Positions 29,476 through 29,722 of a DNA stretch of 40,969 nt are shown here, piece after piece. This DNA comes from Ignavibacteriota bacterium (GTDB lineage Bacteria > Bacteroidota > Ignavibacteria > UBA10030 > UBA6906). A program made the position numbers and the translations under genes. How positions within the stretch are numbered: the first letter of the stretch is position 1; each line of letters opens with the position of its first letter. The notes under the pieces were generated by a model. The model saw only the letters and a list, made by a program, of their open reading frames with translations, was not told where the DNA came from and did not search any database. The stretch covers positions 1 to 40,969 of the forward strand of contig JACRFA010000248.1 of NCBI GenBank assembly GCA_016218065.1, in the 5' to 3' direction.

Positions 29476-29722
29476 TGATGTTACGCACAGTCAATTTTTC
29501 GCACGAATGTATGAAACCCTTTCAGGGTTTACAGGTGTTGGTTTGTTTTATTCCCGAGGGCGTTGCCCTCGGCTATAGTATTTGTCCCTTTCAGGGACGG
29601 CGATTTGCGCTGGTTGACGCTGAAAGCGTCTGATACTATAGGTCGGGGCAATGCCCCGACGCACAGACAACCAAACGAACCCGAACCCTGAAGGGGTGAC
29701 ATATCCGTTTTGCGTAACATCA
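29476..29722. repeat. Mirror-symmetric six-hairpin palindromic element (REP/BIME-like) bounded by 12-bp terminal inverted repeats, element 2
   Basis: TGATGTTACGCA (29476-29487) / TGCGTAACATCA (29711-29722); hairpins at 29514-29530, 29554-29572, 29584-29598, 29616-29630, 29642-29660, about 29683-29699; loops TTC/GTT/TTC then GAA/AAT/GAA. Confidence 0.88.

What the first reader, a model, noticed from the sequence alone, without database searches (positions are those of the whole stretch)
29476..29722. Element 2: 247-bp six-hairpin element bounded by 12-bp perfect terminal inverted repeats
Seen directly: TGATGTTACGCA / TGCGTAACATCA bound a block starting 8 nt after the P5C dehydrogenase stop codon. 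Inside are AAACCCT-TTC-AGGGTTT, CCGAGGGC-GTT-GCCCTCGG, GTCCCT-TTC-AGGGAC | GACGCT-GAA-AGCGTC, GTCGGGGC-AAT-GCCCCGAC, ACCCT-GAA-GGGGT. Hairpins pair across the centre (about 29607), and stem changes are compensatory (CCGAGGGC/GCCCTCGG vs GTCGGGGC/GCCCCGAC). A 9-bp inverted repeat CTATAGTAT (29573-29581) / ATACTATAG (29633-29641) sits at mirror positions. The terminal repeats suggest a MITE-like or REP-like non-autonomous mobile unit; mobility is inference.
Basis: partly seen in the sequence, partly recalled or inferred. Interest (0 to 1): 0.8.

Follow-up and report, generated by a model that had tools for sequence, protein, structure and literature searches.

The report
Hairpin-packed mini-transposon ending in CTGATGTTACGCA
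This 249-base stretch is a small "hitch-hiker" jumping element with no gene of its own, one of a large, previously unnoticed set of mini-elements that share only a 13-base end with a known type of jumping gene and carry very different, hairpin-packed middles.

Summary
The element is a MITE, and its autonomous parent was found. A relative (same order) holds a 1181-bp insertion sequence with the same 13-bp ends, CTGATGTTACGCA, a 7-bp target duplication TTATTAA, and a 360-aa DDE transposase of NCBIfam IS701_2 (312 bits; cut-off 250). Related ISs in several phyla carry the same kind of end. Of 38 complete mini-elements from the window's genome and its relatives, 22 have a perfect 7-bp target duplication; the target is TTANTAA. 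The window copy is old: its duplication matches at 4 of 7 positions, and one terminal base is changed. The orthologous rocA junction has no element in either same-genus genome. No IS701_2 transposase was found in the window's own draft genome.

Two points go beyond an ordinary MITE. One 13-bp end carries at least 16 unrelated cores, none derived from the IS, and most show hairpins, half-to-half symmetry or both (0 of 67 flanks show both). Stem changes are compensatory (21 of 61 pairs), yet G·T is no commoner than A·C, which points to a DNA-level process, not RNA selection. REP/RAYT mobility is not supported.

The parts
29468..29474 (.). left 7-bp target flank CCAGCAA (decayed target duplication)
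   Evidence: position of the 7-bp duplication in intact family members; here 4 of 7 match the right flank
29475..29487 (+). left terminal inverted repeat, ATGATGTTACGCA (family CTGATGTTACGCA)
29514..29530 (.). hairpin 1 AAACCCT-TTC-AGGGTTT
29554..29572 (.). hairpin 2 CCGAGGGC-GTT-GCCCTCGG; loop varies and stem is kept in the other copies
29573..29581 (.). left arm of central long-range stem CTATAGTAT
29584..29598 (.). hairpin 3 GTCCCT-TTC-AGGGAC
29616..29630 (.). hairpin 4 GACGCT-GAA-AGCGTC
29633..29641 (.). right arm of central stem ATACTATAG
29642..29660 (.). hairpin 5 GTCGGGGC-AAT-GCCCCGAC
29685..29697 (.). hairpin 6 ACCCT-GAA-GGGGT
29711..29723 (-). right terminal inverted repeat TGCGTAACATCAG
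29724..29730 (.). right 7-bp target flank TCAGTCA (decayed target duplication)
29731..29826 (+). downstream neighbour, 31-codon ORF MNPRFEILGEIEEICEAHGIGRKEIKIKRRP; a longer version is intact in same-genus genome G001

Best explanation
Window 29475-29723 is a non-autonomous miniature transposon (MITE). Shown: it has the 13-bp ends of an IS701_2-type insertion sequence, the family integrates at TTANTAA with a 7-bp duplication, and the copies are dispersed. Inferred: a DDE transposase supplied in trans by such an IS (now lost, or missing from this draft genome) cut at the 13-bp ends and placed the element between rocA and the next gene, where its target duplication has since decayed. The six-hairpin core is not a deletion derivative of the IS. 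It is one of many unrelated palindromic cores that use the same ends. Its stems stay paired by Watson-Crick co-change, most likely through DNA-level palindrome correction (template switching between arms) or a need for a DNA hairpin or cruciform. A constraint on an RNA is less likely. In transcripts from rocA the core would still form a large stem-loop between the two genes.
For: Copies: 21 BLAST matches in the own genome (itself included), three others near full length at 79-84% identity. TIR: 54 matches at up to 1 mismatch against 21 in the reversed control; the exact 13-mer is in 50 of 150 relatives, against 0 or 1 per strand per genome in the control. TSD: over 41 elements, flank identity is 82% at length 7 and 19-55% at other lengths from 3 to 9; target TTANTAA; 22 of 38 mini-elements have perfect duplications. 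Autonomous IS: G036:C108:1728-2908, same 13-bp ends, TSD TTATTAA, 360-aa transposase, NCBIfam NF049921 IS701_2 at 312 bits against cut-off 250, with the Y-R-E-K signature of IS4-superfamily transposases visible in the alignment. Several partial transposase copies in relatives abut the same TIR. IS701_2 ISs from several phyla have ends of the form CT[GC]A..TTACGC and, where intact, 7-bp duplications. No element at the orthologous junction in G001 and G002. Covariation 21 of 61 pairs; GT:AC = 19:19. Cores do not match any IS body tested.
Against: No IS701_2 transposase was found in the window's own genome: the E<=10 search was empty, and there was only one weak family match, below cut-off and without this TIR. 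The window copy's own duplication is imperfect (4 of 7). The empty junctions come from relatives about 80% identical in rocA, whose spacers do not align, so they are not exact pre-insertion sites. Some type A cores in the genome lack the TIR, so the core has a history not fully tied to this transposase.
Confidence: 0.93

Rival explanations
1. The core is a structured RNA (3' mRNA stabiliser, bidirectional terminator or insulator) kept by selection on the transcript; the TIRs only delivered it.
For: Very stable RNA fold; extensive compensatory change; the element starts 8 nt after the rocA stop; most copies checked lie between genes.
Against: G-U pairs are not favoured over A-C mismatches (19:19 overall, 4:8 in the hairpins), unlike an RNA constraint. 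No Rfam match. No U-tract terminator in the element. Unrelated cores under the same TIR show the same kind of structure.
Confidence: 0.2
2. A REP/BIME-like array mobilised by a RAYT (Y1 HUH) transposase through single-stranded hairpins.
For: Tandem short hairpins downstream of a gene; two Y1_Tnp genes in the genome.
Against: No solo copies of hairpin 2. No similarity between the element and the RAYT loci. 7-bp duplications and perfect TIRs are shared with a DDE-transposase IS.
Confidence: 0.03
3. A site-specific recombinase cassette (integron-like or tyrosine recombinase) with a 7-bp crossover.
For: 7-bp overlap length; inverted core-like ends.
Against: The 7-bp sequence differs from site to site and is duplicated at each one. 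The gene found between the same ends is a DDE transposase.
Confidence: 0.01
4. A decayed, immobile relic: once a MITE, now vertically inherited intergenic sequence with no current activity or function. This is a statement about its present state, compatible with the MITE origin.
For: Imperfect TSD and one terminal change. No resident transposase detected.
Against: The 12-bp repeats and all six stems are still intact. Other copies in the same genome have perfect duplications (C30, C234).
Confidence: 0.5

Closest known systems
IS701-family insertion sequences, NCBIfam NF049921 (transpos_IS701_2)
   Same: Identical 13-bp ends, 7-bp TTANTAA duplications; transposase found between the same ends.
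   Different: The window element has no transposase and shares no sequence with the IS beyond the ends. From memory, classical IS701 members make 4-bp duplications; 7 bp would set this subgroup apart.
Bacterial MITEs (RUP, NEMIS/Correia, QMITE2 of Coxiella, MITEAba12)
   Same: 50-500 bp, TIRs, target duplications, intergenic, stable stem-loop transcripts (PMC10969869; QMITE2 has 7-9 bp duplications).
   Different: Here one 13-bp end is shared by at least 16 unrelated cores, many with hairpins inside a larger dyad.
REP/BIME palindromes and RAYT transposases (PMC3733652, PMC2817692)
   Same: Chains of short, near-perfect hairpins between genes.
   Different: No solo units, no RAYT association, real target duplications.

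Membership tests
MITE | short (under ~500 bp), no transposase gene | tested here: met
   249 bp; no ORF of 90 aa or more lies inside it
MITE | terminal inverted repeats shared by dispersed copies | tested here: met
MITE | target site duplication | tested here: met
   family: 22 of 38 perfect at 7 bp; window copy itself 4 of 7, decayed
MITE | autonomous partner with the same ends | tested here: met
   G036:C108:1728-2908; not found in the window's own genome
MITE | occupied and empty sites | tested here: met
   absent at the orthologous junction in G001 and G002, though the spacers do not align base for base
MITE | active transposition | not testable with these tools
   needs an experiment or close strains
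IS701_2 derivative (internal deletion of the IS) | subterminal sequence shared with the IS | tested here: not met
   27-31% mean identity inside the TIR; no core matches an IS body
REP/RAYT element | solo palindromic units linked to a Y1 transposase gene | tested here: not met
Structured RNA family (Rfam) | match to a covariance model | tested here: not met
   no match at gathering threshold in the window

The most novel reading that the evidence does not exclude
A 13-bp transposon end used by IS701_2 elements mobilises a large, sequence-unrelated set of palindromic cargo cores across a whole bacterial class. The nested-palindrome architecture (hairpins inside a dyad) is itself required or generated by the process, for example through DNA hairpin or cruciform intermediates or repeated arm-to-arm template switching, so that structure, not sequence, is inherited.
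Probability: 0.35. Interest if true: 0.75.

Novelty: new variant of a known kind. Interest (0 to 1): 0.52.

Why it matters
Intergenic hairpin repeats in environmental bacteria are abundant and usually unexplained. Here a set of them, with very different sequences, is tied to one transposase family, one 13-bp end and one target rule (TTANTAA, 7-bp duplication), so they can be annotated and their mobility tested. The co-change of stems without G-U tolerance raises a testable question: do such palindromes persist by DNA-level correction, with no selection on RNA?

Tried and rejected
(1) The IS whose transposase end lies next to a TIR at contig C278 was first taken for the autonomous partner. It has its own ends (GGGGTTGACCAAAAAG) and appears to be inserted inside another TIR element, so it was rejected. 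(2) The TIR as a 12-mer with 9-bp or longer duplications: the length scan over 41 elements gives 7 bp. (3) REP/RAYT origin. (4) Rfam: nothing. (5) Plasmid collection: no match. Viral contigs: only 3 stretches with TTANTAA plus TIR, not pursued. (6) A paper describing this end: none relevant among open PMC texts. (8) ISfinder could not be consulted; the 4-bp duplication of classical IS701 is from memory.

Full report
Observation. The 12-bp repeats are the only exact pair in the 41-kb window. The fold is far more stable than shuffled sequence (RNA z = -8.5; DNA z = -9.5). No Rfam family reaches its gathering score in the window.

Other copies. The window is contig C190 of a 5.17-Mb draft genome in 319 contigs. 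The element has 21 BLAST matches in that genome. C234, C30 and C279 are near full length at 79-84% identity, and several other copies are partial. Searching the terminal repeat alone and reading the hits showed elements with the same ends but quite different cores. I call the window's core type A. Type B has CGTCACTACGTGACG and GCAGACCGTAAACGGTCTGC hairpins (contigs C2, C51, C28 and others; alignment). Type C is built from CCCTCTCC / GGAGAGGG-like palindromes (C163, C192, C215 and the same-genus genome G001).

The ends and the target. The exact 13-mer CTGATGTTACGCA occurs in 50 of 150 related genomes, up to 55 times in one, while the reversed control gives 0 or 1 per strand per genome. Over 41 complete elements taken from these genomes, the flanks match best as a 7-bp direct duplication (82% identity at 7, against 19-55% at lengths 3-6, 8 and 9), with target consensus TTANTAA. 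22 of the 38 mini-elements have a perfect duplication. The window copy has CCAGCAA / TCAGTCA, 4 of 7, and A in place of C at the first base of the left repeat, so it is probably an old insertion.

The autonomous partner. One relative (G036, same order) has the two ends 1181 bp apart, with the duplication TTATTAA. Between them lies a 360-aa ORF whose stop codon overlaps the right repeat. It matches Pfam DDE_Tnp_1 and NCBIfam NF049921 IS701_2 at 312 bits, above the 250-bit cut-off. The alignment shows the Y-x2-R-x3-E-x6-K signature of IS4-superfamily transposases (signature from general knowledge). Several transposase fragments in other relatives also abut this repeat. A scan of named genomes found IS701_2-like ISs in Bacteroidota, Anaerolineae, Acidobacteria, Armatimonadetes, a Treponema, a Pseudanabaena and a Moraxella, among others. 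Their ends are variants such as CTGATGTTACGCA, CTCACCTTACGCA and CTGAAGTTACGCA, with 7-bp duplications where intact. In the window's own genome no such transposase was detected. Multi-copy ISs are often lost from draft assemblies, so this is weak evidence of absence.

The site. In the two same-genus genomes the orthologous rocA junction has no element. G001 has a 72-nt spacer and then a small gene, of which the window keeps a shortened in-frame version starting at 29731. These are not exact empty sites, because the spacers do not align.

The cores. 46 mini-elements fall into 16 core clusters under one end. No core matches the IS bodies tested, and the 30 nt just inside the repeat show 27-31% mean identity to the IS. 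The cores are therefore not internal-deletion derivatives, and the 13-bp end seems to be all that is shared. With the repeats removed, 37 of 39 cores (one locus scored with two alternative left ends) still fold better than z = -2. Of 38 elements, 26 have significant local hairpins, 31 significant half-to-half symmetry and 21 both; of 67 flanking segments of about the same lengths the numbers are 3, 6 and 0.

Compensatory change. In 14 type A cores, including two from another family of the same class (alignment), 95% of cells pair. 21 of 61 pairs have both sides changed, against 0-3 when the partner is slid and a mean of 7.3 when shuffled. The structure was drawn from the window copy, which favours cells paired but not double changes. 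Non-Watson-Crick cells split evenly into G·T and A·C (19:19; hairpins alone 4:8). Selection on an RNA should tolerate G·U and so favour G·T. The balance points to a DNA-level process, palindrome correction by template switching or a need for a DNA hairpin; the numbers are small, so this is a lead and not proof. The 8-bp stem of hairpin 2 is perfect in 12 of its 13 genome copies found by pattern, while the loop varies (GTT, GGT, TTC, TGC, TTT and others); the pattern itself asked for that stem with at most one mismatch.

What it is not. The near-exact matches to hairpin 2 all lie in composite copies, and the two Y1 transposase loci show no link, so REP/RAYT is not supported. No intrinsic terminator is predicted in the element. 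In 18 loci with enough flank, 17 elements are not inside a predicted ORF, as is usual for MITEs (PMC10969869).

Verdict. It is a new variant of a known kind. What a specialist would find notable is the breadth of unrelated palindromic cores carried by one 13-bp end, and the DNA-like pattern of stem co-change.

Noticed in passing
G000:C278:~4125-4267 (L052) and G000:C207:~1-145 (L054): A different IS (ends GGGGTTGACCAAAAAG, transposase C-terminus ...VNVETGLACLAHNMKRLFSMMN) appears to be inserted inside elements that carry the CTGATGTTACGCA end.
   Followed up: partly
G000:C64 (L009), C221 (L010), C118 (L012): Type A six-hairpin cores without the terminal repeat, bounded instead by CGGATGTC ... 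GAGATACCAAAG; what moved them is unknown.
   Followed up: partly
window 29731-29826: The short ORF just after the element (MNPRFEILGEIEEICEAHGIGRKEIKIKRRP) is an internally shortened version of a longer gene intact in same-genus genome G001.
   Followed up: partly
window 19986-21584: An array of 123-bp tandem repeats (41-residue units) inside the ORF 19592-21694 on the minus strand.
   Followed up: no
window 31841-31922: 21-bp tandem repeat TTTGAGGCAATCGA(T/C)AAACGG within the ORF 31778-32254, probably coding for a heptad-like repeat.
   Followed up: no
G000:C51:9179-9205 (L060): Two mini-elements of different core type sit back to back, their terminal repeats one base apart.
   Followed up: no
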